DNA of 42,392 nt from a virus: the IMG/VR virus record IMGVR_UViG_3300013005_003820, positions 1-42,392 of that record; one strand, given 5' to 3'. Positions within the stretch are counted from its first letter, which is position 1. Each line of letters opens with the position of its first letter. Below are positions 5,190 through 39,532 of this stretch, piece after piece. The notes beneath the pieces were generated by a model. That model worked only from the letters and a program-made list of their open reading frames with translations, was not told where the DNA came from and ran no database searches. A program made the position numbers and the translations under genes.

Positions 5190-6044
5190 ATGGCTAATAT
5201 AAAATTTTGTGTTCTTAAACATGATAATATGCATTTATTTGCAAATGCAGACGATAACTTTATCAAAACCCTGCCTATAGGTAATAGAAATCTCTCTGTG
5301 TACGATCAGGATTTCGAAGTAAAAAATATACAGCATTGTCATCTTAATTTTTTAAGTAATATTATAGCCGATCTATATGATAATGATTGTACTATTATAG
5401 ATGTTGGTGCTTATGTTGGTACGGTTTCGTTATTATTGGATCTACATATGTTAAAGAATGATATAAAGTTAGACTATCATTTATTTGAAGCAAATGAGAA
5501 GCATGTGCAATGTTTAACAAAATCTATAGCATTTAATAATTTACAAGATTCTGTTCATCTATATCCATATGCTGTTTCTAGTTCGTGTGGAGTTGCTAAA
5601 TTTAGCTGTGTAGAAAATAAAGATATTTCGGGTCGTATAGACTATAGGGGCGATATAGAAATACCAACAGTAACTATAGATAGTAAAATAAATAGTATTG
5701 ATAAAAACTATATCATTAAAATAGATACAGAGGGTCATGAACCTCATGTTATAAGTGGAGCAATGAATTTATTAAATACAAATAATTGTATACTAATACT
5801 AGAAATTCATCCGTATGTACTAGATACAAAAGTAAACGATAACGAAACCATGTTCGAATATTTAATCTCTAACTATACCATGTTTAATATACAAAATATT
5901 GGTTGGCCAAGTGACTTTACAAAAATTCATAATAAAGAAGAGTTGATACAGGTTTGTAAAAGAGACGGTTTTAGTTTGACAGATATTATATGTTTTAACA
6001 AATCTGTTTCAATAGATTCCAATGCTCTTAAAAATATGTTATAG
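5190..6044 (+). CDS. FkbM-family methyltransferase
   Basis: The 284-residue protein has the FkbM/Methyltransf_21 layout. The SAM-binding motif I is TIIDVGAYVGTVSLLLD, the acidic end of strand 2 is YHLFEAN, and the hallmark downstream motif is IIKIDTEGHEPHVISGA. FkbM proteins O-methylate hydroxyls of sugars or polyketides, and in glycan clusters they usually methylate sugars. It is the only rightward gene between 1 and 22 kb, and its last 17 bases overlap the end of the opposing SGNH-like gene. This orientation suggests separate expression or separate acquisition. Two further FkbM genes lie at 6818 and 27503. Confidence 0.85.
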   Translation: MANIKFCVLKHDNMHLFANADDNFIKTLPIGNRNLSVYDQDFEVKNIQHCHLNFLSNIIADLYDNDCTIIDVGAYVGTVSLLLDLHMLKNDIKLDYHLFEANEKHVQCLTKSIAFNNLQDSVHLYPYAVSSSCGVAKFSCVENKDISGRIDYRGDIEIPTVTIDSKINSIDKNYIIKIDTEGHEPHVISGAMNLLNTNNCILILEIHPYVLDTKVNDNETMFEYLISNYTMFNIQNIGWPSDFTKIHNKEELIQVCKRDGFSLTDIICFNKSVSIDSNALKNML

Positions 6045-6825
6045 TGGCATGTATGAAAACCGGCTCACTAAATCTAATAAATCCATGGTGAGGCTTTATA
6101 AAATTATTATACAGTGTTCTGTCTATATATGGGATTCTGGTTGGATTGGATGATAGTAGTCTGTACGGAGTTAGTTGTTTTACCAGTTTCTCATTATTAA
6201 ATATATCCAATAAGGCATTATTGTGTTCGTGAATAATAGTAAATCTTTTACAATTATTGATTTCTAATCTGTCTGTGGTTCTTTCTATTTTTTCTATCTT
6301 AGGATTAATTAATTTAGGTTTTTGATTAATAAGGAATTCTAAAATTTTATTATTAAAAATTTCTTTTCCTTCTGTATTGAAATGAATATTGTCAAATATA
6401 TGTTCTTTATTTATTCTTAGATCAAGGTATGGTATATTATGTTGTTCAGCGAATTTTTGTTTATATTCATTTATTAATCTGTGATCGTAAATTGAATCTG
6501 TAGTTTTTTCATATGGTCCAGTTAAGCATAATACAAGAGATGAGTCGTATAAGCTTGTATTAAACCAGCTTAAAATATCATTGAGGGTTTCTCCATTATT
6601 CCAACCCCATTTATCATGTATTGATCCACCCAGTAAAAAAATGCCAGGATCAAAACATTTTTTATATTTTAGGATAGTCAGAAATGTTTCTGTGCTTCCA
6701 GAACCTATCGACAAATTTTGAATATTTGCACTAGTATTTTTTTGTAAAAATTCTTTTAGAGCATAAGAAAAATAACATTCTCCACAAAAATATATATTAT
6801 TATAATGTAATTTATATTTATTCAT
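6028..6825 (-). CDS. SGNH/GDSL-hydrolase-like protein
   Basis: The 265-residue protein shows parts of the SGNH-hydrolase pattern. A short strand leads to GEC (residues 15-17), at the position of the GDS block. Segment LVLCLTGPYE would match the middle blocks, and DNIHFNTEGKEIF (residues 145-157) supplies the D-x-x-H block with the catalytic D145 and H148. The usual nucleophilic serine is not in the expected G-D-S triplet, so catalysis is uncertain. In glycan loci such proteins add or remove O-acyl groups. It overlaps the upstream FkbM gene by 8 bases and converges on the rightward FkbM gene. The C-terminal 100 residues match no family I recognise. Confidence 0.5.
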   Translation of the reverse strand: MNKYKLHYNNIYFCGECYFSYALKEFLQKNTSANIQNLSIGSGSTETFLTILKYKKCFDPGIFLLGGSIHDKWGWNNGETLNDILSWFNTSLYDSSLVLCLTGPYEKTTDSIYDHRLINEYKQKFAEQHNIPYLDLRINKEHIFDNIHFNTEGKEIFNNKILEFLINQKPKLINPKIEKIERTTDRLEINNCKRFTIIHEHNNALLDIFNNEKLVKQLTPYRLLSSNPTRIPYIDRTLYNNFIKPHHGFIRFSEPVFIHATITYF

Positions 6826-7432
6826 GTTTATATATTAGATCAGCTCCTAATTTATGAACAAGTTTAAATGAGTTTTGTTCTAATAAATTATTTAATTCAG
6901 CTTGTTGACTTTTACATTCAATAGTCATAACGTCAATATATGTTTTATTAAAATCTATACTTTTTAAAGCTTCTAATTCTGCGCCTTCTATATCTAGAGA
7001 AAAATAATCTATGCGATCAATATTATGTTTATTAAAGACTGTTTGTAACTTTACGCCTTCAACCCATATTGTGGGTATTTCTGGTTTTTTTGTTGCGTAC
7101 CATGACTCTATTTCCTTGATTTGGTTCATCGGCATAAATCTTAATAGTCCTCCCAAATATTGAGCATTTAAAAATAAAAGAGGTTGTTCTACAGAACTTA
7201 TAGCCACATTCTCTACTATAGCTTTGCGATTTTTGACACATCTTTCATAATAAATAGGATTACATTCTATTAAAATTCCTGACCAATTTAAATATTTTTC
7301 AAAGAATAAAGTATTAGAAATATCTAGTCCATTAACAGCACCAGCCTCAAAGAAAAACCCTGGTTCTGTTTTGTTTTTAAAAAATTCTTCATAAACAAAA
7401 ATATCTTGCTTGTTTTGTGAATGTGATATCAT
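6818..7432 (-). CDS. FkbM-family methyltransferase
   Basis: This 204-residue protein is a compact FkbM-type SAM-dependent methyltransferase. FFFEAGAVNGLDISNTLFFE corresponds to the SAM-binding glycine motif, SGILIECNP is the acidic strand 2, and DYFSLDIEGAELEALKSIDF is the family signature D-x-E-G-x-E. The protein begins with SHSQNKQDIFVYE, the typical N-terminus of the short bacterial and viral FkbM group. It probably methylates a sugar hydroxyl. It overlaps both neighbours by 4-8 bases, so the three genes are translationally coupled. Confidence 0.85.
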   Translation of the reverse strand: MISHSQNKQDIFVYEEFFKNKTEPGFFFEAGAVNGLDISNTLFFEKYLNWSGILIECNPIYYERCVKNRKAIVENVAISSVEQPLLFLNAQYLGGLLRFMPMNQIKEIESWYATKKPEIPTIWVEGVKLQTVFNKHNIDRIDYFSLDIEGAELEALKSIDFNKTYIDVMTIECKSQQAELNNLLEQNSFKLVHKLGADLIYKHE

Positions 7433-8034
7433 TTGATCATTTCATTTTTAATATTACTTATATTTTTCATTTTTGAATAAAGATTATCATAAATTATAGA
7501 TATTTTATCGTTATTTTTTTGTGATGTCCTAGGTCTATATCTAAACGAACTAAAATCTATTTTTTTTTCTAGAAAAGTTTCTATCATAAGTGTGTTATTT
7601 AATATTGTAGTAAAATCCAAAAACAAAATAGGAAATGATGTTTTAGTGGTTGACCAATTGTCAAACTGCCATTCTATACCGATCATATCTTTATTCTCTT
7701 TATACGCAATTTCAATATAAGTATCATAATCAATTAATGCCTTTTTTTCTAGGTTATATGGATTGCCTAGAGCATATGCCCAACCCATTCTGAAATGAGA
7801 CATTATTGAAAGATGTGGATCTCCAAATATATAGATACACTTGTCAATGCTAGTTTTTATTTTATTTGGACTAGATATGTGTTTTAGTTTATCTGTATTT
7901 ATAATACAATTGGTAATTAATGGATTATATTTTATATAGATTAATCTATCTTTATATTCTAGATGTAACAACCCATTTATGAATTGCATAAAATAAGATT
8001 GTCCGGATCCTCCTGGTCCAACTACTAAAATCAT
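7429..8034 (-). CDS. P-loop protein, possible sulfotransferase-like enzyme
   Basis: The 201-residue protein opens with VVGPGGSGQSYFMQF (residues 4-18), a P-loop that could bind a nucleotide phosphate or the 5'-phosphosulfate of PAPS. There is no K-[ST] pair as in classic Walker A loops, which favours a sulfotransferase-like or divergent kinase-like fold. FLDFTTIL and FRYRPRTS lie toward the C-terminus. It sits among glycan-decoration genes, and a clear carbohydrate sulfotransferase lies at 13643, so a sulfate-transfer role is plausible but unproven. It overlaps the downstream FkbM start by 4 bases. Confidence 0.45.
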   Translation of the reverse strand: MILVVGPGGSGQSYFMQFINGLLHLEYKDRLIYIKYNPLITNCIINTDKLKHISSPNKIKTSIDKCIYIFGDPHLSIMSHFRMGWAYALGNPYNLEKKALIDYDTYIEIAYKENKDMIGIEWQFDNWSTTKTSFPILFLDFTTILNNTLMIETFLEKKIDFSSFRYRPRTSQKNNDKISIIYDNLYSKMKNISNIKNEMIK

Positions 8035-8037
8035 TTT

Positions 8038-9021
8038 TTATAATCCATATTTTTCTATAAATTTAATTATATTATTGTTATTATTTATTTTGTCTAATAA
8101 AGTTAAATAAGAATTATTATTTTTTTGATATATACCTAAAATATTAGATAGCCAAATTAATATCAAAGAATTAGCGAAATCAGAATAATGATCTTGATCA
8201 TAACCAAAAATATCTTGAGGCATAACTAATCCGTCTAGCATCATATCAGCAAAAAAATCAACTACGGACAATAAGGTAATGTTGGAGTTTTGAATTTGTT
8301 GGAAATTTTTAAGGTGTATCTTGTAAAATTTGTCGTGTTTTAGAGTCGTAATATCTTCTTGAGTAAATATTTTTTTACGAGTATTAAAAATAGGACCATT
8401 AATTAAAACATAAAACTGATTATTGGTTTTATATTTTGAATATATCTCATAAAATTTTTCTATAGCATCTATTTCTTTTCTTAATAAAAAATTATTTAAT
8501 TTAAATAGATATGGAGAAGAATGTAAAAAAGTATGAGGGTGTAATAATTTAAAAATATTTTTGTAGTTACTATTTGCATAGCCACAAATGTTTTCATTAA
8601 TATTTGTATAGCAATCTGTTAGTAGGAATGGTGTATGACTATTGCCTATAAAAATTTCAAATACATCATCTAAATGATAACACCTATTAGATAGTCCTTT
8701 AGCCAAACAAGATCCAATGAAAGCTATAGGGAATTTATTTATGATATCATTCAATACAAATATTTTTGATTCTGTGTCTGAAATCCTATAAGATCCTTCT
8801 CTCGTACCCATGTATTTAAATATCATGGTTCTAGAAATTTTAATTGGTTTAGTATAATGATGACCATCATTAATATTAGATAAATCAATAATTTGATTTG
8901 TAGCATATTTAATACTATAGTCTATCGTAGAGTCATATGGAGAGATAATTGATAGATCAAAATTATTTTCATAATAACCTGATTCATGACTACATATTGG
9001 AGTAGCGGACTGCTGTATCAT
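8038..9021 (-). CDS. Two-domain protein: chitobiase-C-like beta module plus SGNH-like domain
   Basis: The first about 90 residues read like the beta-sandwich module found at the end of chitobiases and beginning of CotH proteins: ESGYYENNFDLSI, then a Y-S-I-K strand, then YTKPIKISRTMIFKYMG, closing with GSYRISD. The rest of the 327 residues opens with AFIGSCLAKGL, where G-S-C fits an SGNH block I, continues with FIGNSHTPFLLT, and ends with YDQDHYSDFAN, which offers a D-x-x-H pair followed by a serine. A carbohydrate-related acyl hydrolase or transferase with a glycan-contact module is the simplest reading. No signal peptide is seen. Neither domain is certain. Confidence 0.45.
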   Translation of the reverse strand: MIQQSATPICSHESGYYENNFDLSIISPYDSTIDYSIKYATNQIIDLSNINDGHHYTKPIKISRTMIFKYMGTREGSYRISDTESKIFVLNDIINKFPIAFIGSCLAKGLSNRCYHLDDVFEIFIGNSHTPFLLTDCYTNINENICGYANSNYKNIFKLLHPHTFLHSSPYLFKLNNFLLRKEIDAIEKFYEIYSKYKTNNQFYVLINGPIFNTRKKIFTQEDITTLKHDKFYKIHLKNFQQIQNSNITLLSVVDFFADMMLDGLVMPQDIFGYDQDHYSDFANSLILIWLSNILGIYQKNNNSYLTLLDKINNNNNIIKFIEKYGL

Positions 9022-9038
9022 AATTTTTAGTACCTGTG

Positions 9039-9806
9039 TTAGATTTTTATTTCTTCAAAAGTTTTGTAGCAAAATTCATCTGGGACAGTAATTTTTTTTG
9101 TATTAAACAAATGAATAAATGAAGATGATTTAGAAATTGTAGTATCACTGTAATATATAGCATCCATTGTTTTTATAGTTGTTTCGGTATCTTTGCCTAT
9201 AAAAGTATCTATAATTCTGATATTATCAGAAAAAGATAATTGTTTAATTTGATTGTGATAAGAACTATTTTGAGCAGTGTCCGAGCATATGGTGATGTCT
9301 GTTTTTTCTTGAAATAGGTTGTTGATAAAATTATTAATTTTTAAAGGATTAATCATAGGTCTTATTAATTTATTAGCAGAAACAAGGTCTGTCTCTCTTA
9401 AGTGAAGAGTAACTTTATTAAAAGATTCAGATTCTAAAAAGGGATTGTTTGTAGGCTTGTATGTGAATAAAGATTGGGTGGGTGTAATATCTAATCTTCC
9501 GAATTTTGAAAACGAAGAGAAGTCTTGATTATCTATTGTTAGAGCTATAAGTTTATGATCTGTAATTGTTTTTTGATTTAATAAATCTCTAAAAGATATG
9601 TTAATTATATTTTGTGGCTCAAAATCTACATAGTCTCCATTAAAAAATAGATTTATAAAATCCAAGTTTTTGCAATGATAGTTTGAGTACTTTAATTGAT
9701 TACAAACAACATATTTATATTCTGATCCCAAAATAGCTGATAGTACCCGTGTTGTACCAACATAGTCTCCAAAACCAGAATTTCTTAATACTGTGAATAA
9801 TTTCAT
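9039..9806 (-). CDS. Fucosyltransferase-like (GT-B) protein
   Basis: The 255-residue protein begins with FTVLRNSGFGDYVGTTRVLS, a glycine-rich first loop. It has LHLRETDLV in the middle, at the position of the H-x-R-x-G-D donor motif of GT11/GT23/GT65-type fucosyltransferases, and ends with YYSDTTISKSSSFIHLFNT, matching the S-x-S-S-F segment of the same clan. The variant E-T-D replaces the usual R-G-D, so activity is uncertain. Its start overlaps the end of the neighbouring three-domain gene by 4 bases. I take it as a member of the fucosyltransferase-like superfamily without assigning a donor sugar. Confidence 0.5.
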   Translation of the reverse strand: MKLFTVLRNSGFGDYVGTTRVLSAILGSEYKYVVCNQLKYSNYHCKNLDFINLFFNGDYVDFEPQNIINISFRDLLNQKTITDHKLIALTIDNQDFSSFSKFGRLDITPTQSLFTYKPTNNPFLESESFNKVTLHLRETDLVSANKLIRPMINPLKINNFINNLFQEKTDITICSDTAQNSSYHNQIKQLSFSDNIRIIDTFIGKDTETTIKTMDAIYYSDTTISKSSSFIHLFNTKKITVPDEFCYKTFEEIKI

Positions 9807-12800
9807 AATAGATTTTTAATTTTATAATTTGACAGTATTTCTTTGGTAGATTTTCTTAGTATTTCTCTGGTTTCTGAATATAGATTTGGATTGTATGTAG
9901 CGTATTTTTTAACGTCTTCTAATGTTATTATTTTATTTGTAATAAATTCTTCTATTGAAATTCTCGGCAGCTGCATTGTTTCACACAATTCTTGGGTTCT
10001 GGAATCATGATATATCCAAACAGTAGGACAACCAGACTGAAAGCTTACCATATTGCCGTGAAGCCTCAAGCCAAAACTAAAATCGCATCTAGCAGCGTCT
10101 TCAAGCCATTGAGTAATATTTATATAGGTTTTGAATCTACTATGAATAAAATTATTGATCCATATTTCATCGTTAAGATATTTTTGTGGCAGTAGGGACT
10201 TCATTATATTTGATGTTTTAAGTTCTGATTTTTGATGGTATGTATTATTATATCTAACCAAATCAATTAAAGGGTCTATGGATTGAATAATGTATGGTCC
10301 ATTTTTATCTATAATTAAAGACACAATCTTTTTTTCTGCAATAGATTTGGTATTATCTCCTGACCATATGACGCCAGAATTACACATAATAGAATCTATA
10401 TTATTATTCCATTTTTTTTCTATAGTTTCTATTGGATTATTAGGATTAATAAAATTACTAGGACAACCAATTACAACTGTGTTTTCCACGCCATATAGTT
10501 TTAAAAATTCTTTTGTATATTCTCCCCTAACCCCAACAATATTATCTGGATTTTTAAAAAGTTCTATTATGTCTAATACACTTTGATGAAGATTGAGCTT
10601 GTTTATCTCATAATTCTTTGCTTGTACTCCAACCCCAAGAAAAATTAACGGAACCTTGATATTTTTTAAGAAATTAGCCCAATTAGTATAATCAACATTT
10701 TCAGATATAAAACTTGAAGATGGAACAACAACATATTTACATCTACTATTTATTTCTGTTGGTGTCATATTATTAATATAAATTTTTTCTTCATTAATAA
10801 AATTCCATATCGCATATTGAAATACTAAATTTCCAGAGTTATTTCCAATCTTATTTAAAAAGGTTTTACTGTCTAATAAATAGGCATTATCCAGAGTTCC
10901 ATTTTGAGATGTTATTCCTATAATTTTTGAATTTCTGTTTTTAGATTTATTAATATGTCGATTTTGAGATATAATAACATTATTGTCATGGGAAATATTA
11001 ATATCAGAGCATTTATAATTTTCAAATCTTTTAGAATTAGCGTGTGGAGTATGGAATATTGCTGCACAATTATGGTTTAGATATAATCTTCTGCATCCTG
11101 ACTCCTCTAATCGACTATAAAGATCGCTATCATCATATCCATATCCTTCAAAATTTTCATTGTATCCTTCTATATCTAATAAATCGCTTTTATAAGCATA
11201 TATAAAACCATTGAGATATTCAAAAAATCCAATATTATGATCTAAATATTTATCTGACCATGAACCAGTTAAAAATTCGCCCCTATTAATACGATATATA
11301 TTAAAAAAATTATAGTATGGGTTTAGGATATAGTCAGTATCCATTTTCAAAATTATTCTATTTTTACAAGAACGAATTGCAATATTGTATGCTTTGGACA
11401 GATGAAAATATTTTTCTCCAGGAACCTTTATAATTTTAATTCTAGGATCAATATTTGCTATATCATCAATAGATTCATCGGAAGACCAATCAACAATAAT
11501 AATTTCCTCAATTTCTTTAAATAAAATCCAAGATCTAATAGCAAATAAAAGTTGTTCTTTTCTATTTTTTACCGCACAGATCAGTGACACCTTGATATTA
11601 TCCGAGATTTGTTTTTCATGGTCTTGTCTATGATTGAGCGCAATTTTAAGAGGAATATGTCTAAACTTAGAAGAAATGTAGGAAAAACTACTCCAATTTG
11701 ATCCAATAATATATTTTGTTTCTGACAAAGCCATCATATCTATTACGGCATCTTTTTGGTTATCTTTGGGCTTTGTGTGATCGACACTATCAAAAAAAAT
11801 CTTTGTATTGTTTACAATGATTTGAGGAAATAAGGAACAGAACTTTTCCTGTGTTTTAATACAGTCTGTTGCCAGAAAAAACTTGACATCTGGATTTAAA
11901 CGTATCTCATTATTTATTGCTTCTATAAAGGTATTGTCATCAGATACTTTAAAATTTTTATCCCATGGTGAATTCATAGCATCCCCTCGTCTGATATGAA
12001 TACCAATGGTTTTCTCGTTAAATTGAGAAGTTGTATTTTCAATAGTTTCTGAAATACTAGCTTTAGGTTTTAGGAGTTTATATATTGTTGACTCTTCTCT
12101 AAAAGAATAAGTAAACATATATTCCAAACAAGAATCTCCAAAATAGCTAAATTCTTCATTTTCTATTTTATTTAAAATATCTTGAGACGGTATATTAATT
12201 ATATAATAATCTGGATTATCATCAGTTTTGTATATGTGTTTATCTAAGTTAAATATATTTTTAGTTTTATTATTATATTCTTCATTTGATATGAATGTTA
12301 TAAAATCAATATCTTCAAATAAGTCATGAAACTTTTCATTAGACCAACCTGGACCATTCTCCCAACAAACATATAATTTTCTATTATGCTTAGTTGCATA
12401 ACTAAAAAATGAATTCAGTGTTCTAATCCTGTTGGCTAGTCCATTAACAACTTTTATATAAATATTTTTTGTTGTTATATTTTTCTTTTGACTGCTTAAA
12501 AAATGGTGATATATTTTTTTTTCTTTAGCTATCAGAGATCCTGTTTTAAATAAATGCTGATTTGACTCAGGGTATATATTTTCATATTCTTCAGCATTAA
12601 AATATTTTGGAACTATAAAATTAACTCCAAGTAGATCATTTTCCATTTCTTTTAAATTTTTATATGCATGATTTTTTTCTCCATAAATCTTATAATGATA
12701 ATAAAGTCTATATTTATTATTTATATTATTATTTTGACAGAATGGTTGATAAAAATCTTGTGTCTCTGGATATTGCTTAATATAGAACACATCATCAAAA

Positions 12801-13626: not shown

Positions 13627-13642
13627 AAATTTTAAAATTAGT

Positions 13643-14623: not shown

Positions 14624-14646
14624 GTAAATTTTTAATTGTTTCTAAT

Positions 14647-17712: not shown

Positions 17713-17713
17713 G

Positions 17714-18967: not shown

Positions 18968-18974
18968 TAATGTT

Positions 18975-19997: not shown

Positions 19998-20533
19998 AAA
20001 GACGAATGTCCTCTCAACGTTTGTGTCATTGTTTCATTAAAATAAAAATTGTATTTTTCTATACGATCAATAATATAATCGTTTGTTTTGCAATTAACAT
20101 GACCGTCTCCAGGTTGTCCTGGAACAGCCCAACTTATAATAATAAGATTATGACTATGGTTTACAATATTGTTAATAAAGTTATTTTCATATATTTGTGG
20201 TATATGTTCTCCGACCTCAAGACTAAGAACACAATCATATGTTTTTTTTAGTGATATTGGTTTTGATAAATCTATTGTATCACATAAGTTGTTTGTTAAT
20301 AAATTGGTATCGGGATGTCCATCATAACAATTACAGACTATATTATTATCAATAAATGCTTTGGAGTATTTACCAATACCACAACCTAGATCAAGAACAT
20401 TTTTTATATTGTTTTGTTTGAAAATATTGATCAATGATTGACATAAATTATTATCGTGATAGTGTTTGTTTACGATATCTCCGTCCCAAGCCCCACTGGT
20501 TTTATCTATATTGAATCGATGTTTAGTATTCAC
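19946..20533 (-). CDS. Class I SAM-dependent methyltransferase
   Basis: The 195-residue protein has motif I at VLDLGCGIGKYSKAF (residues 46-60), strand-2 acidic CYDGHPD, and motif IV-like DCVLSLEVGEHIP with the E-x-G-E-H-I pattern of Methyltransf_11/23 proteins. The C-terminal strand pair ends in IMFFQKTKPY. The substrate is likely a sugar or a lipid-linked glycan, given the setting, but that is inferred. It overlaps the upstream GT2 gene by 4 bases and the downstream dehydratase gene by 52 bases. Confidence 0.8.
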   Translation of the reverse strand: MNTKHRFNIDKTSGAWDGDIVNKHYHDNNLCQSLINIFKQNNIKNVLDLGCGIGKYSKAFIDNNIVCNCYDGHPDTNLLTNNLCDTIDLSKPISLKKTYDCVLSLEVGEHIPQIYENNFINNIVNHSHNLIIISWAVPGQPGDGHVNCKTNDYIIDRIEKYNFYFNETMTQTLRGHSSLWWFKNTIMFFQKTKPY

Positions 20534-21174
20534 ATATTACCTTTAGCTATTAATTCATTTATTCTGTTGCTCTCAAATTTATTTTTTATTTTATAGTTCT
20601 CTACTCTTAAATCATCTCCATGAGGATTATGATATATTAAGTATGGTATATTTCTAATAATATTTTTTTTGCGAATTTTAGATAATCTATTGTATAGATC
20701 TTGATCATCATATCCCCAGCCGTTTAATCTTTCGTTGTATTTACCTGCTTCATAAAAAGCTGACTTATCAAAAAAACAAATGCCCCAGTGTTCTACAGTA
20801 ACGTGTTCGCAACAGTAAAAGTCTGTATTGAGTTTTGGAATAATGCTTTCAAGTAAAGTTGGTAGTTTTGGAGACGATAATATATGGTCTATATCTAATT
20901 TAAGAATATTATTATTTATGGTATTACCTATTGCCAAATTGTATGATTTTGGCAAACTGAAGAATTCTTGATTTTCCACTCTAATTATATTGATATGTGG
21001 GTGTTTAGAAAGAAAAGATTTTATATTAGAATTATCAAGTATATTTTCTTTAGAAGACCAGTCAACCAAAACAATATTATTGATAACTGGAAAATTAACC
21101 CAAGAAGATAAACAGCTAATAATTCTGTCACTCCTATTCATGACAGAAATGACTACGGATATATTATTGCTCAT
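20530..21174 (-). CDS. GT2 glycosyltransferase, paralogue of the middle domain of the 1016-residue protein
   Basis: The 214-residue protein is a GT2/GT-A enzyme: ISVVISVMNRSDRI as strand 1, VLVDWSSKEN, then ILKLDIDHIL holding the DxD (D-I-D), and GWGYDDQDLYNRL at the acceptor side. The last motif and the D-W-S-S text match the GT2 domain of the protein encoded at 9803-12853 almost position by position, so the two are paralogues. The G-[WY]-G-x-D-D-x-D pattern is shared with galactosyltransferase C-terminal domains. It overlaps its upstream neighbour by 11 bases. Confidence 0.85.
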   Translation of the reverse strand: MSNNISVVISVMNRSDRIISCLSSWVNFPVINNIVLVDWSSKENILDNSNIKSFLSKHPHINIIRVENQEFFSLPKSYNLAIGNTINNNILKLDIDHILSSPKLPTLLESIIPKLNTDFYCCEHVTVEHWGICFFDKSAFYEAGKYNERLNGWGYDDQDLYNRLSKIRKKNIIRNIPYLIYHNPHGDDLRVENYKIKNKFESNRINELIAKGNM

Positions 21175-21421
21175 ACTTATTCCATTTGCCGATAGGACAT
21201 TCTTGATCAGCCCATGCTAATTTATTCATAAATTGTTTCTTATTAGATAAATTGCAGCCACAAACACCGCATTGGTTATTCACCCTATCGAACTGATCGC
21301 AATATATACATATTTGCCACCTTTTGTCTATTTCTTCTTGAGGGCTTTTTGGAAATCCCGCCCAAACATGGAAAAATAGAGACTTAAGAAATATTCTTAT
21401 TTTTAATAAGAGTTTCGACAT
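21164..21421 (-). CDS. Small zinc-ribbon-like protein
   Basis: This 85-residue protein has two cysteine knots, CIYCDQF and CGVCGCN, followed by CPIGKW, a spacing that would bind zinc. The N-terminal 20 residues are basic and hydrophobic (LLLKIRIFLKSLFFHVW) and may form a membrane-associated helix. Small proteins with the CGVCGC...CPxGKW signature occur in many large phages without a known role. It overlaps neighbours on both sides. The function is unknown. Confidence 0.75.
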   Translation of the reverse strand: MSKLLLKIRIFLKSLFFHVWAGFPKSPQEEIDKRWQICIYCDQFDRVNNQCGVCGCNLSNKKQFMNKLAWADQECPIGKWNKYEQ

Positions 21422-21641
21422 TTGTTTCGCTTTTGATTGGATAAAAATTATTGTCTTTATCTATAGAGTAAAGACTAGCTTCAGAAACTATAGTATTGCC
21501 TTTCAGCCACATGGAACAGCCCGTTTTTATATTAACGCAGTTCCTTTCTCCATTTTTTTTAAAGTCTGATGTTACTAGGTACAGACTACCTTGGTGCTCG
21601 AAACAATCGGCATGTTTCAATTCTTCTATGTATTTTTCCAT
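21384..21641 (-). CDS. Small uncharacterised protein
   Basis: The 85-residue protein has no recognisable family. It is predicted mostly beta, with strands at SLYLVTSDF and CVNIKTGCSMWL and a charged C-terminus. It lies tightly between two other small genes (1-base gap upstream, 38-base overlap downstream), which supports it as a real gene within the leader part of the leftward transcript. Confidence 0.55.
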   Translation of the reverse strand: MEKYIEELKHADCFEHQGSLYLVTSDFKKNGERNCVNIKTGCSMWLKGNTIVSEASLYSIDKDNNFYPIKSETNVETLIKNKNIS

Positions 21642-21642
21642 A

Positions 21643-21855: not shown

Positions 21856-21916
21856 TTTAATCTGCCAGAACCCTCCTTTATATGTGTTATAAAAAATTAC
21901 CAACCATACATCAGTA

Positions 21917-21944
21917 ATAATACACTATTCGACCATATTGTCAA
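21917..21944 (-). promoter_or_regulatory. Sigma-70-like promoter for the leftward glycan operon
   Basis: On the minus strand TTGACA (21939-21944) is followed by a 16-base spacer and TATTAT (21917-21922). The -35 is a perfect consensus and the -10 differs at one base. It points at the small charged gene and, through the overlapping genes, probably the glycan island to about 6 kb or further. It shares a 209-base intergenic region with a rightward promoter. Confidence 0.7.
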
Positions 21945-21972
21945 TATCGTGACTATTTAGAATTTTTATTTC

Positions 21973-22004
21973 TTGACAAACGCCAGATTGATCTTATGTA
22001 TTAT
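21973..22004 (+). promoter_or_regulatory. Putative promoter for the rightward glycan operon
   Basis: On the plus strand TTGACA (21973-21978) and TATTAT (21999-22004) are separated by 20 bases, longer than ideal. A shifted -10 (TATGTA, 16-base spacer) is weaker. Placement is appropriate: 60 bases before the ATG at 22065, in a divergent region with no coding frame. Confidence 0.5.
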
Positions 22005-22064
22005 GCAGGTCCGGTGTGATAACTATTAGGTACTAACTACACTAACTATAAGAATATACTCTCT

Positions 22065-23723
22065 ATGCATAATACTACCCTAGTCACTGGTATATGGGAT
22101 CTAGGAAGATCAGGACTAGAAGAAGGATGGTCAAGGAAATTTGATCATTATGTCGATCACTTTAAAAGACTTTTAGAGGCTACTAGAGACACGAATATGT
22201 GTGTCTTTATAGACCAAGAAAACGAAAATATTGTATGGGATATTAGAGATAAGAGCAATACCGCTGTCATTCATCAGCCTGCAAAATCTTTTAATAGTAG
22301 TTTTTTTCCATTTTTTGATAAAGTGCAGTCTATAAGAACTAATCCAAGTTGGTACGATCAAGTTGGATGGCTTAAAGAAAGTACACAAGCTAAGATGGAA
22401 TGGTATAATCCGATGGTTATGAGCAAAATGTTCATGCTGCATAACGCTAAGTGTTACAATATATTCGATACAGACTATTATTTCTGGATAGATGGAGGTA
22501 TTACAAATACAATTCATCCAGGGTATTTTTATCACGACAAGATCATAGAAAAAATTGAAAAGTTAGTTTCAAAATTTTTATTTGTATGTTTTCCCTATGA
22601 GACAAATAGCGAAATACATGGTTTTGATATCAATGCTATGCGTAAATTCGCCCAAAGCGAGACAGTAGACAGAGTTGCTAGAGGAGGATTCTTTGGAGGA
22701 CACAAAGAGTTTATATCTTATGCGAATGATATGTATTATGGTTTGTTAAGAGATTCTCTTAATGAAGGATTTATGGGTACTGAGGAGAGTATTTTTACTC
22801 TGATGAGCTATTTAGATCCAGAAGTTTTCCAAGTAGAAATGATAGAAGGTAATGGTTTACTTGGCACGTTCTTTGAAAATGTAAAAAATGATAAGACACA
22901 ATTAGCACAATCAACTACAGTTAAACAAGTTTCTCATACAAATAATGATATAGTTATATATATAAATGCATTTAATTCTCCAGAACAATTGCAGATGGTT
23001 TGTGATTCATTTGAACAATATGATAAATCATTTTTAGACAATACTAAAGTATATTTAATAAATAACACTAATAGAGAAGAACTATTTCCTCTATATGATA
23101 TTATATCTAAAAAATATGGTTTTACAGAAATTAGAAAAGGTAATATAGGTGTTTGTGGTGGTCGCCAATTAGCCGCCGAACATTTTGCAGAATTAGGCTC
23201 AAAATACATGTTATTTTTTGAAGATGATATGCTTGTTGATACTGATCCAAACAGAACTTGTAAATTTGGTTTCAGGAAATATGTTCCAAATCTGTTAAAA
23301 ACAGCTATATCTATTATGGACATAGAAAATTATGATTTCTTAAAGTTAACATTTAGTGAATTTTATGGAAATAATTCAGAACAATGGGCGTGGCATAATG
23401 TTCCAGGTGAACGAAAAATAGAATACTTTGGAAACATCAAGAAAAGACCACAAACAAAATTTTCCTGCATTAAATCATTTAATGGTACTCCATATGCAGA
23501 GGGTGAGATTTACTATTCTAACTGGCCTCATATTATATCTCAGGACGGTAATAAAAAGATGTTCTTAGACACAACGTGGGCACACCCTTTTGAACAAACA
23601 TGGATGAGCCACATTTATACATTGACCAGAGAGAACAAAGTTAAGCCTGCCATTTTACTAGCTAGTCCAATTACACATAATAGGGTTCATTTTTATGAAG
23701 CGTCAGAAAGAAAAGAAAACTGA
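22065..23723 (+). CDS. Two-domain glycosyltransferase: HtrL/YibB-like plus GT2-like
   Basis: This 552-residue protein opens with TTLVTGIWDLGR, then a long aromatic region with WIDGG (141-145), which together match the HtrL/YibB family. The second half (from about 295) restarts with IVIYINAFNSPEQLQ and has GVCGGRQLA and FFEDDML (E386-D388), typical of a GT-A DxD region. It may make two successive transfers, or one domain may be regulatory. Its last 29 bases overlap the GT60 gene. It opens the rightward operon 60 bases downstream of a putative promoter. No Shine-Dalgarno is obvious before the ATG. Confidence 0.75.
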   Translation: MHNTTLVTGIWDLGRSGLEEGWSRKFDHYVDHFKRLLEATRDTNMCVFIDQENENIVWDIRDKSNTAVIHQPAKSFNSSFFPFFDKVQSIRTNPSWYDQVGWLKESTQAKMEWYNPMVMSKMFMLHNAKCYNIFDTDYYFWIDGGITNTIHPGYFYHDKIIEKIEKLVSKFLFVCFPYETNSEIHGFDINAMRKFAQSETVDRVARGGFFGGHKEFISYANDMYYGLLRDSLNEGFMGTEESIFTLMSYLDPEVFQVEMIEGNGLLGTFFENVKNDKTQLAQSTTVKQVSHTNNDIVIYINAFNSPEQLQMVCDSFEQYDKSFLDNTKVYLINNTNREELFPLYDIISKKYGFTEIRKGNIGVCGGRQLAAEHFAELGSKYMLFFEDDMLVDTDPNRTCKFGFRKYVPNLLKTAISIMDIENYDFLKLTFSEFYGNNSEQWAWHNVPGERKIEYFGNIKKRPQTKFSCIKSFNGTPYAEGEIYYSNWPHIISQDGNKKMFLDTTWAHPFEQTWMSHIYTLTRENKVKPAILLASPITHNRVHFYEASERKEN

Positions 23724-24972
23724 AAATTTAATTTTTATACAAATAGCATCATATAGAGATCCAGAGTTACTTAAAACTCTTAAGGATATGATAGATAATG
23801 CCACATATCCAGAGAATCTTAGGGTTGGTATAGCTTGGCAGCATAGTGACGCTGATAGCTGGGATAAGTTAGACGAATACAAAAATGATCCAAGATTCAG
23901 AATACTTGATATCAATTACAAAGACTCAAAGGGGGTGTGTTGGGCAAGAAATGCTGTTCAACAATTATATAACGGCGAAAAATATACTCTTCAACTAGAT
24001 TCACACCACAGATTTGCAAAAGATTGGGATAAAACACTTATAGATATGCTTACAGGATTACAAGAAGAAGGTTTTAAGAAACCTCTCATTACAGCATATA
24101 TTCCTAGTTTTGATCCAGAACACGATCCAGAAAAAAGGGTGCAAGAACCTTGGAAAATGAATTTCGATAGATTCATTCCAGAGGGAGCCATCTTCTTCCT
24201 TCCTGCATCATTTGATTCTTTTAATGACAGAAATCGTCCAGTTAGAGGAAGATTCTATTCTGCTCATTTCGCATTCACTGTAGGAGAATTCTGTAAAGAA
24301 GTTCCTCATGATCCTAACTATTATTTCCACGGAGAAGAAATCAGTATAGCAGTTAGGGCGTATACTCATGGGTATGATATTTTTCATCCACACAAAGTTG
24401 TTTGTTGGCATGAATATACAAGAAAAGGAAGATCAAAACAATGGGACGATGATCCTGTATGGCCACAAAGAAATAATGACTCTCATCTAAGAAATAGAAA
24501 ATTATTCGAAATGGATGGCCTTACAAATGATATAGATTTTGGTCCATTTGGATTTGGAAAGAAAAGAACCGTTGCAGACTATGAGAAATATGCTGGTATC
24601 TCTTTCAAGAAAAGAGCTGTACAAAGATATACTCTTGATCATAAGGAGCCTCCAAATCCTGCTTTCTCAACTGAAGAAGAATATCAAAATTCTTTCTTAA
24701 ATATATTTAAACATTGTATTGATATAGGGTACTCGCAAGTTCCTGAGACAGACTATGATTTCTGGTGCGTTGCTTTTAAAGATGATAACGGAAATGATCT
24801 CTATAGACAGGATGCCGATGAAGCTGAAATAGCTCGTATGAAAAATGATCCTGACGGATACTGCAAAGTTTGGAGAGAATTTTCTACAGAAGTTAAGCCA
24901 AAGAGTTGGGTTGTTTGGCCTCATAGTAGATCTAAAGGTTGGTGTGAGATTATTCAAGGAAATCTTCCGTGA
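23695..24972 (+). CDS. GlcNAc-transferase-like glycosyltransferase (GT60-type)
   Basis: The 425-residue protein closely follows the GT60 pattern known from Skp1-hydroxyproline GlcNAc-transferases: FIQIASYRDPELLKTLKDM at the start, GVCWARNAVQQLYNGE, then LQLDSHHRF (D102-x-H104 metal motif), and ITAYIPSF. The distal part HGEEISIAVRAYTHGYDIF resembles the acceptor-binding half. The enzyme would add GlcNAc or a related sugar to a hydroxyl acceptor. About 100 further residues (from roughly 320) have an acidic and aromatic make-up and no match that I recognise. Coding is less AT-rich than in the leftward island. It overlaps neighbours at both ends. Confidence 0.85.
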   Translation: MKRQKEKKTENLIFIQIASYRDPELLKTLKDMIDNATYPENLRVGIAWQHSDADSWDKLDEYKNDPRFRILDINYKDSKGVCWARNAVQQLYNGEKYTLQLDSHHRFAKDWDKTLIDMLTGLQEEGFKKPLITAYIPSFDPEHDPEKRVQEPWKMNFDRFIPEGAIFFLPASFDSFNDRNRPVRGRFYSAHFAFTVGEFCKEVPHDPNYYFHGEEISIAVRAYTHGYDIFHPHKVVCWHEYTRKGRSKQWDDDPVWPQRNNDSHLRNRKLFEMDGLTNDIDFGPFGFGKKRTVADYEKYAGISFKKRAVQRYTLDHKEPPNPAFSTEEEYQNSFLNIFKHCIDIGYSQVPETDYDFWCVAFKDDNGNDLYRQDADEAEIARMKNDPDGYCKVWREFSTEVKPKSWVVWPHSRSKGWCEIIQGNLP

Positions 24973-25970
24973 CCACAATAAAATTCCATCGTATAGATAA
25001 TAAGGTCTGGGGAAGATATCATGCTATTTGGTTTAGAAAATTTGCCAAGTATCTTGAGCAATATTTTAATGTTGAATGGAAAGATTATTTTGATCCAGAT
25101 AATCAAGTAGCATCATCTAGATTAGAATTACTCAGTGATATCAGAGGGTTTGATCACAATCCTCCATTAAGTGATGTTGATTGTGTTATTGAAAATTTAG
25201 ATACTAAAAAATTTGTAGTACTGACATTCACAGAATATTTTAATTCTTATGTTGTTCACTACTTAAAGTCAGAAAATTGTCAAAAACTATTATCTGCACA
25301 CTTTAATTATCATAATATTTATTATTGGCTTAAAAGAGATAATCTTGTCCATAGACTACCAGATGTTAGGCCATGGTTTTTTGGTTCAATAGATGAATGG
25401 GATATTAATAAATATAGAGATATAAGAGATAATACTGCTTTAGAAGATAGGTCAAAATCTTTATTCTGGAAAGGTTCAGGAATAGGATCTTACAGAAAAG
25501 TAATAGAGATATTACGAGACAAAAATGTCATAGATACACAAACTTTACCGTTTGATCTATATATGCAAACACTAGCCAAACAGAAAATTGCTTTAGCATA
25601 TTATATGGATTTAGACAGATATTCAAATCCCTATGATTACCCCGGAGAATTCTGTTATAGAGATATGGAGTATTGTGCCTTGGGAGTCCCGTTTATAAGA
25701 GTAGAATACAAGGACTGTGTGCATAATGGACTAATACCTAATTATCACTATATAAGTATACCAAGAGAAACGGCTTATACAACATATAAAGAAAAGGGCA
25801 ATGATGGTGTAGCTTCTCTTATAGAAGAAAAATACAATGAAGTCATAGATGAAGAAGATTTACTTAAATATATATCCGATAATCAGAGACAGTGGTTTGA
25901 TGAGTATGGTATATGGCCAAATAGCGCTAAGTTAGCGATGAACCTATCCGGAATAGACAAATGGATCTAA
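24969..25970 (+). CDS. Glycosyltransferase-like protein of unknown family
   Basis: The protein starts with GTG at 24969, which overlaps the preceding TGA. It has 333 residues. SKSLFWKGSGIGSYRKVIE and FCYRDMEYCALGVPFIRVE resemble the GT-B-like signature of CAP10/GT90-type and related transferases, in which an F-x-G loop and an acidic pocket contact the nucleotide sugar. The resemblance is weak, and I would call it only glycosyltransferase-like. It is translated in the middle of the operon and overlaps the next gene by 10 bases. No membrane segments or signal peptide are seen. Confidence 0.45.
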   Translation: MTTIKFHRIDNKVWGRYHAIWFRKFAKYLEQYFNVEWKDYFDPDNQVASSRLELLSDIRGFDHNPPLSDVDCVIENLDTKKFVVLTFTEYFNSYVVHYLKSENCQKLLSAHFNYHNIYYWLKRDNLVHRLPDVRPWFFGSIDEWDINKYRDIRDNTALEDRSKSLFWKGSGIGSYRKVIEILRDKNVIDTQTLPFDLYMQTLAKQKIALAYYMDLDRYSNPYDYPGEFCYRDMEYCALGVPFIRVEYKDCVHNGLIPNYHYISIPRETAYTTYKEKGNDGVASLIEEKYNEVIDEEDLLKYISDNQRQWFDEYGIWPNSAKLAMNLSGIDKWI

Positions 25971-26851
25971 AAAACCTAACAATAACTACATGCTTGTACT
26001 ATGATCTTTGTGGAACAGAATTTGGAGGAAGAGTACATCCAAGAAATAAATATTTCTATGGCCTAATATCCATGCTCAAAATGGATTGTTCTATTGTTTT
26101 ATATTGCTGGGAAAAAAATGTAGAAGAACTTAAAACCTTTGTAGTTGCAGAATATGGCGAAAAAATATTGGATAAGATTAAATTTGTACCATTTGATCTA
26201 TATAAAAGCCCACTATACGATGTTATTCGTACAATAAAAGATCCAGAAGAACAGAAAAAATCTGACAGAACATATGATTTGATGCAAGCAAAATTTTTAA
26301 TGGTTAAAAATACTGTAGAAAAGAATTTTTTCAACACAGATAATTTTTATTATATGGACGTTGGACTATCAAGCTCTGCATTATTTCCTTTCAAATATTT
26401 GCCTATGCAAAATGACCCAATGAAAAAATGGTCAGATTGTTCATTATTTAATAACACGCTGGTTGATGGTCTTATAAATCTAATAGACCCTAAAACCGTA
26501 GTCATGTGGAGAATAAGTGACTGGCTTCACTGGATAGATCCTATACATCTTAGGACAACAGACAGAGAATCTATTATTGGAGGTATATTCGGTGGTAAGA
26601 AAGAGCCTATTATAAAATATTGCAATGATATAACAGATAGATTCATAGATATGGTACTAAATAAAAAAACATTATATCTAGATGAAGTAATTATGACAAT
26701 AGAACATAATTTTAATCCAGATAAATATAAAAAGGTTAATTTTGATGTTTGGTATCATGAAGATAGTGGAGATTGGTGTCAAGCCGCTATAGTCGGCAAA
26801 AAGAGTTTTTATAGAACATTCGAGGAGCTTAATAATATTTATGCAAACTGA
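25961..26851 (+). CDS. HtrL/YibB-like glycosyltransferase
   Basis: The 296-residue protein follows the HtrL pattern in LTITTCLYYDLCG, the W-E-K-N segment, and NFYYMDVGLSSS, which occupies the same place as WIDGG in the first gene of the operon. It also shares G-G-I-F-G-G-K-K with the G-G-F-F-G-G-H-K segment of that protein, so the two are homologous across the first 250 residues. The function of HtrL is unclear, but it sits in LPS-biosynthesis clusters in E. coli. The gene overlaps its neighbours by 10-11 bases. Confidence 0.65.
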   Translation: MDLKNLTITTCLYYDLCGTEFGGRVHPRNKYFYGLISMLKMDCSIVLYCWEKNVEELKTFVVAEYGEKILDKIKFVPFDLYKSPLYDVIRTIKDPEEQKKSDRTYDLMQAKFLMVKNTVEKNFFNTDNFYYMDVGLSSSALFPFKYLPMQNDPMKKWSDCSLFNNTLVDGLINLIDPKTVVMWRISDWLHWIDPIHLRTTDRESIIGGIFGGKKEPIIKYCNDITDRFIDMVLNKKTLYLDEVIMTIEHNFNPDKYKKVNFDVWYHEDSGDWCQAAIVGKKSFYRTFEELNNIYAN

Positions 26852-27506
26852 TCATGTGGGAAGAATACTTAATCCAGAAGGTGGATATTTAGATATAAAT
26901 GGTAACCCAATAACTGGATGCTGTGCATTCTTAGGCATCACAGCTATGCAACATGAGGGTGCCTTTGATGTTTTTAAGAGACTTTTACAAGAGACCAAGC
27001 CTGCCAGAGTTCTTGAAATAGGTACGGCAGCAGGGGGTCTGTGTCTTTATTTGAGACGTACTTTAAATGATCTTGGTATGTCAGACGTCCCGATTAAAAC
27101 ATTTGATATCTACGACACTCCTACGCACAGGGTTCTGGAACAAGAAAATAATTTAGAAGTAATCTATGACAATATTTTTACTCAAGATTATTTAAGTTTA
27201 CAAAATCCTGGTCTTGTTTTAGATTTCATACAATCTCCAGGCTTAACACTAGTTTTGTGTGATGGTGGCAATAAGATTAATGAATTTAAATTAATATCTT
27301 CAATGTTAAAATCTGGAGATATTATTATGGCTCATGATTATTCTCCAAATTTAGAATATTTTAAAGAACATATAATGAACAAGGTTTGGTGCTGGATGGA
27401 GATTCAAGATTCTGATGTTCAACAAGCTTGCCTAGACAATAAACTAGAACCTTTCATGGCTACAGAATTTGCCAATGTTGTTTGGCTCTGCCGCAGAAAA
27501 TCATGA
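26841..27506 (+). CDS. Class I SAM methyltransferase (CmcI-like)
   Basis: The 221-residue protein has RVLEIGTAAGGLCLYLRR as the SAM-binding motif I, a strand-2 acidic IKTFDIYD, and LVLCDGGNKINEF followed by SGDIIMAHDYS, the pattern of cephalosporin hydroxylase/CmcI and O-methyltransferase-like proteins. The D-G-G-N-K and A-H-D-Y segments are typical of metal-assisted members. Within this operon it probably O-methylates a sugar. It overlaps the next gene by 4 bases (ATGA). The substrate is unknown. Confidence 0.75.
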   Translation: MQTDHVGRILNPEGGYLDINGNPITGCCAFLGITAMQHEGAFDVFKRLLQETKPARVLEIGTAAGGLCLYLRRTLNDLGMSDVPIKTFDIYDTPTHRVLEQENNLEVIYDNIFTQDYLSLQNPGLVLDFIQSPGLTLVLCDGGNKINEFKLISSMLKSGDIIMAHDYSPNLEYFKEHIMNKVWCWMEIQDSDVQQACLDNKLEPFMATEFANVVWLCRRKS

Positions 27507-28114
27507 ATAGAACATTAATTACAGAAGAACAGTTTGCCGAATACTGTGAAAGTATTCCTGATGTATTTTTTATACAAATAGGAGCAAATGATGGAATCTC
27601 GTTTGATCCTATACATCATTTAATTATGAAACATAATTGGAAAGGTGTTCTTATAGAGCCAGGCAAAGTAGCATTCGATCAGTTGCGTGAAACATATAAA
27701 GATAGAAAAAATGATCTAGTATTTTTAAATTATGCTGTTTCTAATTATGATGGTGAAATAAGTCTTTATTGTGGATCGACAACTCCACACTTTACTGTTG
27801 ATTTTCTCAAAGCTAAACATATGTTTGATGTTGAACCAAAAGAATTCTCAGTTCCTTGCATATCAATGAGTACTCTTGTTCAACAATACGTTAAGGTCAA
27901 ACTTGATGTATTACAAATAGATGCTGAAGGACATGATCATATCATTTTAGAAAATTTTGATTTTAATGCTTTTACGCCAAAAATTATACGATTTGAACAC
28001 GTTTCTATAGAAGAACTGGCTCTTAAAAAATGCTTGACTACTATGTTGGATTTTGGTTATAATATCATGTACAGTACCGATGGTGCTGATATTATAGCTA
28101 TAAAAGAGAAATAA
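27503..28114 (+). CDS. FkbM-family methyltransferase
   Basis: From the ATG at 27503 (which overlaps the previous stop) the protein has 203 residues. It contains FFIQIGANDGISFDPIHHLI as motif I, GVLIEPG as strand 2, and LQIDAEGHDHIILENFDF as the FkbM D-x-E-G-H-D segment. A TTG seven codons earlier is in frame but unneeded. This is the third FkbM protein of the window and resembles the short form at 6818 in the spacing of motifs. It probably methylates a sugar hydroxyl. Confidence 0.85.
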   Translation: MNRTLITEEQFAEYCESIPDVFFIQIGANDGISFDPIHHLIMKHNWKGVLIEPGKVAFDQLRETYKDRKNDLVFLNYAVSNYDGEISLYCGSTTPHFTVDFLKAKHMFDVEPKEFSVPCISMSTLVQQYVKVKLDVLQIDAEGHDHIILENFDFNAFTPKIIRFEHVSIEELALKKCLTTMLDFGYNIMYSTDGADIIAIKEK

Positions 28115-36794: not shown

Positions 36795-36819
36795 TTTAAA
36801 TCTCCTATATCCTGTGAAA

Positions 36820-39489: not shown

Positions 39490-39532
39490 TATTCTTCTCC
39501 AAAAGTGTCGTTATCGAACCTGTGATGTTCGT

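What the first reader, a model, noticed from the sequence alone, without database searches (positions are those of the whole stretch)
5190..28114. A glycan-assembly and decoration island of unusual size in a phage
About two dozen genes in two divergent operons combine sugar-nucleotide dehydration, several glycosyltransferase families (GT2, GT11/23-like, GT32, GT60-like, HtrL-like; GT4 and exostosin genes lie just left of it), three FkbM methyltransferases, sulfotransferase, pyruvyltransferase and WcbI/SGNH-like proteins. No typical glycan-export or polymerase genes (Wzx, Wzy or ABC transporters) are seen. A virion glycosylation system or a surface modification that excludes other phages would explain this.
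Basis: partly seen in the sequence, partly recalled or inferred. Interest (0 to 1): 0.8.

Follow-up and report, generated by a model that had tools for sequence, protein, structure and literature searches.

The report
Phage island for mucin-like virion glycosylation
A large bacterial virus carries a swappable cluster of about two dozen sugar-attaching and sugar-modifying genes, built around an enzyme of the kind that makes mucins; it probably coats threonine/proline-rich stalks on the virus's own tail proteins with variable sugars, which would give these phages a changeable glycan coat.

Summary
The island is real. It is two insertions (about 24 kb) into a conserved jumbo-phage locus that in related phages is either almost empty (0.45-0.8 kb) or loaded with other glycan genes. 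Loaded loci share a fixed pair: g26 (GT60, PF11397, E 5e-75) and g25 (HtrL_YibB plus a second GT domain); the other genes turn over fast. The g26 model matches polypeptide GalNAc-transferases, the enzymes that start mucin-type O-glycosylation. The g25 model matches collagen and O-mannose protein glycosyltransferases. No island enzyme has a membrane helix.

The new observation is the likely acceptor. Records with g26 encode mucin-like TPTxTPT proteins (33 of 36, including XacN1, RAS14 and CM1); records without it do not (1 of 19, and that one is cut inside the locus). The TP-rich proteins I could place lie in structural gene blocks, one carrying a tail-fibre domain. XacN1 virions are reported to contain glycoproteins.

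Best reading: a cytoplasmic, phage-encoded mucin-type O-glycosylation system that coats virion adhesin stalks with variable glycans. Not shown: enzyme activity, the linked sugar, and acceptors in this genome (the contig lacks its structural module).

The parts
22065..23723 (+). g25: invariant core 1. N-terminal HtrL_YibB-like domain plus a C-terminal GT-A domain (EDDM motif)
   Evidence: PF09612 2e-11; model pLDDT 91, fold matches LH3, COLGALT1, POMGNT1/2; same operon as g26 in 69 of 80 loci and in the only three GenBank phages that carry g26
23695..24972 (+). g26: invariant core 2. GT60 polypeptide HexNAc-transferase-like enzyme with invariant D102 and H104 (D-S-H)
   Evidence: PF11397 5e-75; model pLDDT 93, best 25 PDB matches all polypeptide GalNAc-transferases; 65-73% identical in loaded relatives
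24969..25970 (+). g27: variable cargo, family unassigned
   Evidence: 86% in nearest relative G035, mostly 22-31% elsewhere in the same position
25961..26851 (+). g28: variable cargo, remote glycosyltransferase-like
   Evidence: 89% in G035, mostly 21-35% relatives at the same place; no Pfam hit
26841..27506 (+). g29: SAM methyltransferase (Methyltransf_23-like)
   Evidence: PF13489 1e-4, below cut-off
27482..28114 (+). g30: FkbM methyltransferase
   Evidence: PF05050 6e-17
28116..28505 (+). g31: small protein with signal-like N-terminus; relatives seen only at loaded loci
   Evidence: hydropathy 2.19 at N-terminus; relatives in 7 loaded loci
20530..21174 (-). g23: GT2/GT7C glycosyltransferase
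   Evidence: PF10111 5e-9; 36% relative at the same place in G006
19946..20533 (-). g22: SAM methyltransferase
   Evidence: PF13489 3e-6
18975..19997 (-). g21: NDP-sugar 4,6-dehydratase; the best conserved left-operon gene
   Evidence: PF16363 1e-46; TIGR01181 3e-66; 78% in G035
17714..19024 (-). g20: unassigned, probable glycosyltransferase
   Evidence: no profile above noise; 38-53% relatives in G035-G037
16924..17712 (-). g19: unassigned
   Evidence: no Pfam match above noise
16151..16936 (-). g18: fucosyltransferase-like by motif only (GGLGNR, HVRAGD)
   Evidence: sequence inspection; no Pfam match
15486..16154 (-). g17: GT32-like by motif only
   Evidence: sequence inspection; no Pfam match above noise; 46% relative in G035
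14647..15489 (-). g16: WcbI-like by motif only
   Evidence: PF18588 E 0.15, below cut-off; 42% relative in G035
13643..14623 (-). g15: sulfotransferase-like by motif only (IPKCGGTS)
   Evidence: sequence inspection; no Pfam match
12841..13626 (-). g14: unassigned
   Evidence: no match
9803..12853 (-). g13: 1016-aa fusion of O-FucT-like, GT2/GT7C and pyruvyltransferase domains
   Evidence: PF10250 3e-4, PF00535 1e-6, PF02709 3e-9, PF04230 3e-19
9039..9806 (-). g12: unassigned
   Evidence: no match above noise
8038..9021 (-). g11: WcbI-like by motif only (GSCLAKG)
   Evidence: sequence inspection; no Pfam match above noise
7429..8034 (-). g10: P-loop sulfotransferase-like by motif only
   Evidence: sequence inspection; no Pfam match
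6818..7432 (-). g09: FkbM methyltransferase
   Evidence: PF05050 1e-14
6028..6825 (-). g08: SGNH-like by motif only
   Evidence: PF13472 E 0.24, below cut-off
5190..6044 (+). g07: FkbM methyltransferase, lone plus-strand gene on the left side
   Evidence: PF05050 1e-13
4091..5089 (-). g06: exostosin (GT47)-like; belongs to the island although outside the given coordinates
   Evidence: PF03016 1.5e-18; relatives only in loaded G036/G037
2786..3454 (-). g04: GT2-like (by motif) gene between g05 and g03; second small insertion
   Evidence: 82% in G035; no such gene at empty loci, where the g05-g03 gap is 69-165 b
21164..21641 (-). two small conserved backbone ORFs between the two insertions
   Evidence: found in loaded and empty genomes alike, 28 and 29 of the compared records

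Best explanation
The island encodes a cytoplasmic, phage-encoded mucin-type protein O-glycosylation system. g26 (GT60) would put the first HexNAc, probably alpha-GlcNAc, on threonine or serine in TP-rich stalks of newly made virion adhesins and tail proteins. g25 would extend it. The variable genes (GTs, dehydratase, methyl-, pyruvyl- and probably sulfotransferases) then build and cap a phage-specific glycan before or during virion assembly. The outcome would be a glycosylated fibre and baseplate surface whose chemistry changes by swapping cargo genes at one locus. Shown: the locus, its empty and loaded states, the invariant pair, the enzyme families and folds, the link with TP-rich proteins, and the place of those proteins in structural gene blocks where checked. 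Inferred: acceptor identity, first sugar, order of steps and benefit (protection of stalks, evasion of host receptors or decoys, adhesion).
For: 1) g26 is PF11397 at 5e-75, and its model's 25 best PDB matches are polypeptide GalNAc-transferases, several solved with mucin peptides. [quoted passage not shown] cruzi, and a soluble cytosolic relative acts on Skp1 (PMC8724618, PMC3188802). 2) The g25 model matches collagen glycosyltransferases LH3/COLGALT1 and O-mannose GlcNAc-transferases. g25 lies in the same operon as g26 in 69 of 80 loci, and both occur in the same 3 of 50,697 GenBank phages. 3) TPTxTPT codons occur in 33 of 36 records with g26 and in 1 of 19 without it, with the reversed pattern at 0-1 (Fisher p 1.6e-10). 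Separate contrasts: XacN1, RAS14 and CM1 positive against RaK2-like phages 0 of 6; loaded G007 against empty G009. 4) In G035 the nine TP-rich ORFs lie in the block after terminase and portal; one ends in a tail-fibre domain. A non-carrier (G030) has that fibre domain without TP repeats. 5) In XacN1 and RAS14 a giant TP-rich ORF next to a baseplate gene (annotated in XacN1) sits a few kb from g25. 6) XacN1 virions contain at least two glycoproteins (PMC5852040). 7) No membrane helices in the island enzymes.
Against: The window contig lacks its structural module, so acceptors in this genome are not seen. Three carriers lack TP repeats (G033 and G044 are 72-77 kb fragments, G047 122 kb). The association is partly phylogenetic. 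No biochemistry exists for this clade, and the XacN1 glycoproteins have not been tied to ORFs in the text I could read. g26 finds no PDB relative by sequence, only by fold, with whole-length TM scores near 0.5. Many cargo genes are unassigned.
Confidence: 0.7

Rival explanations
1. The island modifies the infected cell's surface glycan (capsule or O-antigen), blocking superinfection or hiding the cell.
For: Jumbo-phage and cyanophage glycosyltransferase clusters are read this way in a comparative review (PMC7824862). The cargo families (GT2, GT25, FkbM, pyruvyltransferase) also occur in capsule loci (own knowledge).
Against: No membrane helix, lipid-linked initiating transferase, flippase, polymerase or ABC exporter among the island proteins. 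The invariant core is polypeptide-GT-like, and the island tracks TP-rich proteins.
Confidence: 0.12
2. No enzyme-substrate link: GT60 and TP-rich proteins are both carried by phages of the same hosts or habitats.
For: Carriers are partly related to each other, and G065 has TP repeats with no g26 found.
Against: Within one phage clade loaded and empty relatives differ in both features. The XacN1/RAS14/CM1 against RaK2-like contrast repeats it. G065 is cut inside the locus, so its state is unknown.
Confidence: 0.1
3. The glycosyltransferases hypermodify phage DNA.
For: Phage GTs can decorate modified bases (own knowledge). IMPDH and nucleoside-deoxyribosyltransferase-like genes lie next door.
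Against: Those nucleotide genes are backbone and also flank empty sites. The island has no recognised base-modifying enzyme, and the core folds match protein glycosyltransferases.
Confidence: 0.03
4. The island makes a soluble oligosaccharide or secondary metabolite released on lysis.
For: The variable tailoring genes resemble natural-product decoration.
Against: No scaffold synthase recognised in the island; the core is polypeptide-GT-like and tracks TP-rich proteins.
Confidence: 0.03

Closest known systems
GT60 mucin-type O-glycosylation of Dictyostelium and Trypanosoma cruzi (polypeptide alpha-GlcNAc-transferase)
   Same: Same family for the first enzyme; acceptors rich in threonine and proline; glycans extended by further GTs.
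   Different: Here it is in phages, apparently cytosolic and soluble, with a second fixed GT (g25) and a rapidly changing set of decorating genes; activity untested.
Xanthomonas phage XacN1 and Stenotrophomonas phages RAS14/CM1
   Same: Carry the g26 and g25 homologues and TP-rich proteins; XacN1 virions contain glycoproteins (PMC5852040).
   Different: Shorter operon (g26, carbamoyltransferase, one or two genes, g25); different host and backbone; the XacN1 authors, in the passages read here, did not link the enzymes to mucin-like acceptors.
Mycobacteriophage virion glycosylation (Freeman 2023, as cited in PMC12619734)
   Same: Glycans on virion proteins of phages.
   Different: Reported glycans sit at C-termini of capsid and tail-tube subunits; no GT60 core, mucin-like stalk or large variable island that I know of (the paper itself was not held).
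Cyanophage and jumbo-phage sugar clusters (PMC7824862)
   Same: Polymorphic clusters of GTs and sugar-modifying enzymes in large phages.
   Different: Interpreted there as host capsule/O-antigen modification; no invariant GT60 plus HtrL-GT pair or acceptor link in the passages read.
Chlorella virus PBCV-1 capsid glycosylation
   Same: Virus-encoded glycosylation of its own virion protein, independent of ER and Golgi.
   Different: Eukaryotic virus, N-linked capsid glycan, different enzymes (own knowledge).

Membership tests
GT60 / PF11397 polypeptide HexNAc-transferase | Match to the family profile above cut-off | tested here: met
   PF11397, 253.6 bits against cut-off 21
GT60 / PF11397 polypeptide HexNAc-transferase | GT-A fold of the polypeptide GalNAc/GlcNAc-transferase type with metal-binding D-S-H | tested here: met
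   Best 25 PDB fold matches are polypeptide GalNAc-transferases; D102 and H104 invariant in 45 sequences including bacterial ones. That DSH binds the metal in GT27 is own knowledge
GT60 / PF11397 polypeptide HexNAc-transferase | Transfers HexNAc to a polypeptide | not testable with these tools
   needs an enzyme assay
Mucin-type O-glycosylation system | Dense Ser/Thr/Pro acceptor domains encoded with the initiating enzyme | tested here: inconclusive
   Met in 33 of 36 records with g26; the window contig holds no structural module and shows none
Mucin-type O-glycosylation system | Secretory-pathway (Golgi) location in the eukaryotic systems | tested here: not met
   No membrane anchor in g25/g26, as expected for a bacterial cytoplasm; so 'works like', not strict membership
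Phage virion glycosylation | Glycan on virion proteins | not testable with these tools
   Only indirect: XacN1 glycoproteins by proteomics (PMC5852040)
Wzx/Wzy or ABC polysaccharide export locus | Flippase/polymerase or ABC exporter and lipid-linked initiating transferase | tested here: not met
   No membrane helix in any island enzyme; no such Pfam family
2OG prolyl-hydroxylase-dependent (hydroxyproline, Skp1-type) glycosylation | Prolyl hydroxylase accompanying the GT60 enzyme | tested here: not met
   PF13640 in only 2 of 22 carriers searched and in 2 of 8 non-carriers

The most novel reading that the evidence does not exclude
Jumbo phages make true mucins. A GT60-initiated, cytoplasmic mucin-type O-glycosylation pathway coats TP-rich adhesin stalks, and a hotspot of exchangeable decorating genes gives each phage its own glycan serotype. 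It occurs in at least two unrelated phage lineages and several hundred environmental contig stretches.
Probability: 0.6. Interest if true: 0.88.

Novelty: new variant of a known kind. Interest (0 to 1): 0.8.

Why it matters
It gives phage glycosyltransferase islands, often read as host-surface tools, a concrete and testable virion target. If right, mucin-type O-glycosylation is widespread in bacterial viruses, phage particles carry variable glycan coats that could affect adsorption, receptor decoys, protozoan grazing and immune recognition, and XacN1 is a cultured model in which the claim can be tested directly.

Tried and rejected
- Hydroxyproline/Skp1-type acceptor with prolyl hydroxylase: PF13640 is in only 4 of 30 records, without relation to g26; rejected as a general route.
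- Collagen-like GXY acceptors: only short runs, and only in non-carriers; rejected.
- Related phage by DNA similarity: no megablast hit in 50,697 phages.
- Relatives of the g13 fusion: none by pattern scan.
- PHROGs for unassigned island genes: nothing above noise.
- Sequence-level PDB relatives of g25/g26: none (only a weak, spurious hit).
- GT4, IMPDH and NDT as island members: rejected, they flank empty sites too.
- DNA modification as function: rejected for lack of any recognised base-modifying enzyme in the island.
- Promoter scan of the divergent intergenic region: 9 sites against 7.0 +/- 2.4 in shuffles, no clear excess.
- My first parsimony run scored G021 as empty, but its contig ends inside the operon; it was dropped and the result was unchanged at 6 changes.
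Full report
WHAT WAS CHECKED. The window is a 42,392-base virus record from IMG/VR. Its right part, 28.5-41.4 kb, is phage backbone: subtilase, trypsin-like protease, HNH-like gene, an actin-like protein (Pfam Volactin), a RuvB/clamp-loader-like ATPase, rIIB and rIIA. Its left end carries GT4, IMPDH, a nucleoside deoxyribosyltransferase-like gene and a 192-aa gene (g05) that I call macro-like from its sequence only; no profile match supports that name. Between them lie about 24 genes; the left operon is at 23-30% GC, below the right backbone at 32-36%.

THE OBSERVATION. Two divergent gene blocks meet near 21.2-22.0 kb. Profiles confirm the sugar-nucleotide dehydratase, GT2/GT7C, pyruvyltransferase, three FkbM methyltransferases, GT60, HtrL_YibB and, just outside the given coordinates, exostosin. 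The sulfotransferase, GT32, GT11, WcbI and SGNH calls rest on motifs alone. The GT4 gene does not belong to the island.

THE LOCUS IN RELATIVES. A rIIB scan gave 80 related loci, and I laid out the rIIB-to-IMPDH region for 25 records. Two states exist. In empty genomes the subtilase is followed by two small ORFs, g05, g03 and, in most, IMPDH and GT4, with gaps of 0.45-0.8 kb (g32-g05) and 0.07-0.17 kb (g05-g03; 1.1 kb in G025, which lacks the subtilase there). In loaded genomes a divergent operon sits between subtilase and the small ORFs, and a second operon sits before or after g05; the g32-g05 gap is 5.9-8.3 kb in most, 24.5 kb here, and of similar size only in the window's nearest relatives G035, G036 and G037. 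A tree of three backbone proteins needs at least six gains or losses, so this is not one recent transfer. In G035 (g26 92% identical) the right operon is 60-92% identical, but in the left operon only the dehydratase (78%) stays close while other matched genes fall to 38-46% or are replaced. Cargo in other loaded genomes is again glycan tailoring: GT2, GT25, GT10, GT61, GT47, FkbM and other methyltransferases, epimerases and an aminotransferase.

THE INVARIANT CORE. Loaded loci keep g25 and g26. At least 500 IMG/VR stretches encode g26 relatives; in 69 of the best 80 loci g25 lies close by on the same strand, either directly before g26 or at the far end with cargo between. Among 50,697 GenBank phages only XacN1, CM1 and RAS14 have g26, and the same three have g25. 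AlphaFold models (pLDDT 93 and 91) were compared with the PDB. The best 25 matches of g26 are polypeptide GalNAc-transferases. g25 matches LH3, COLGALT1, O-mannose GlcNAc-transferases and chondroitin/heparosan polymerases. By sequence neither finds a PDB relative (one search gave only a weak, spurious phosphatase match). [quoted passage not shown] cruzi, with a cytosolic form for Skp1 (PMC8724618, PMC3188802).

THE ACCEPTOR. In four large records, loaded G002 and G007 encode 4 and 7 proteins with long TPTPTVTPT (and in G007 PPSPPS) tracts, while empty G009 and G030 have one short tract and none. I then counted the DNA pattern for TPTxTPT in 46 records of at least 70 kb and scored g26 in the same records, with eight further jumbo phages and CM1 added later (for those eight, absence of g26 rests on the tblastn). 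With g26: 33 of 36 positive, up to 120 sites. Without: 1 of 19 (Fisher p 1.6e-10; within IMG/VR records alone 30 of 33 against 1 of 11, p 1e-6). The reversed pattern gives 0-1 everywhere. The one exception, G065, has its sites in the last 200 bases of a contig that ends inside the locus. Related records are not independent, so the p-values overstate the case, but the contrast repeats in separate places: XacN1 and RAS14/CM1 against RaK2-like phages, and G007 against G009.

WHERE THE TP PROTEINS ARE. In G035 all nine lie at 55-130 kb, after terminase and portal and before or among the large tail/baseplate-like genes shared with relatives; one ends in a tail-fibre domain that a non-carrier (G030) has without TP repeats; others carry RCC1 propellers or a P-domain. 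In G002 one TP-rich ORF lies near the island itself, next to the actin-like gene. In XacN1, TP-rich ORF350 lies among head genes and giant TP-rich ORF325 next to the baseplate wedge and about 3 kb from the g25 homologue; RAS14 has the matching giant ORF. XacN1 virions were reported to contain at least two glycoproteins, though the text does not say which.

MECHANISM. No island enzyme has a membrane helix, so the work is probably done in the cytoplasm on newly made virion proteins: g26 starts, g25 extends, cargo builds and caps. Shown are the genes, the locus dynamics, the folds and the association. Inferred are the acceptor, the first sugar, the order of steps and the benefit.

LIMITS. The window's own structural genes are not on the contig. 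No biochemistry exists for this clade. The membrane test is a simple hydropathy scan. Cargo genes are often unassigned. Supplementary data of the XacN1 paper could not be read here. A targeted search of the paper library found no paper combining bacteriophage, GT60 and glycosyltransferase, which is weak evidence of novelty.

Noticed in passing
window 35937-40101: rIIA, rIIB and g44 are 99% identical to those of G002/G003, while neighbours on both sides are 66-82%: a recent recombination patch in the rII region.
   Followed up: no
window 30549-31550: Actin-like protein matching Pfam Volactin (8e-62), conserved at 63-94% in loaded and empty relatives; possible phage cytoskeleton or segregation filament.
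   Followed up: no
window 28508-30152: Adjacent subtilase and trypsin-like protease (the latter with a signal-like N-terminus) at the island border, kept in most relatives.
   Followed up: no
L406/L407 (G065), contig 100.9-116.9 kb: A related phage has about 20 different, mostly plus-strand genes at the same site without g25/g26 before the contig ends; a 2OG-Fe(II) oxygenase lies nearby.
   Followed up: partly
G007 contig 89313-92462 and 94008-96803: Extensin-like PPSPPS and poly-proline tracts in phage proteins, the second fused to a long cysteine-rich repeat domain.
   Followed up: no
L241 (RFNS01000277.1), L242, L243: Small contigs in bacterial MAGs encode g26 at 61-71% identity; probably phage contigs binned with bacteria.
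   Followed up: no
L253-L274 (mostly Burkholderia/Paraburkholderia), L284-L288 (cyanobacteria): GT60 relatives at about 36-46% identity in bacterial genomes; function and acceptors there unknown.
   Followed up: no
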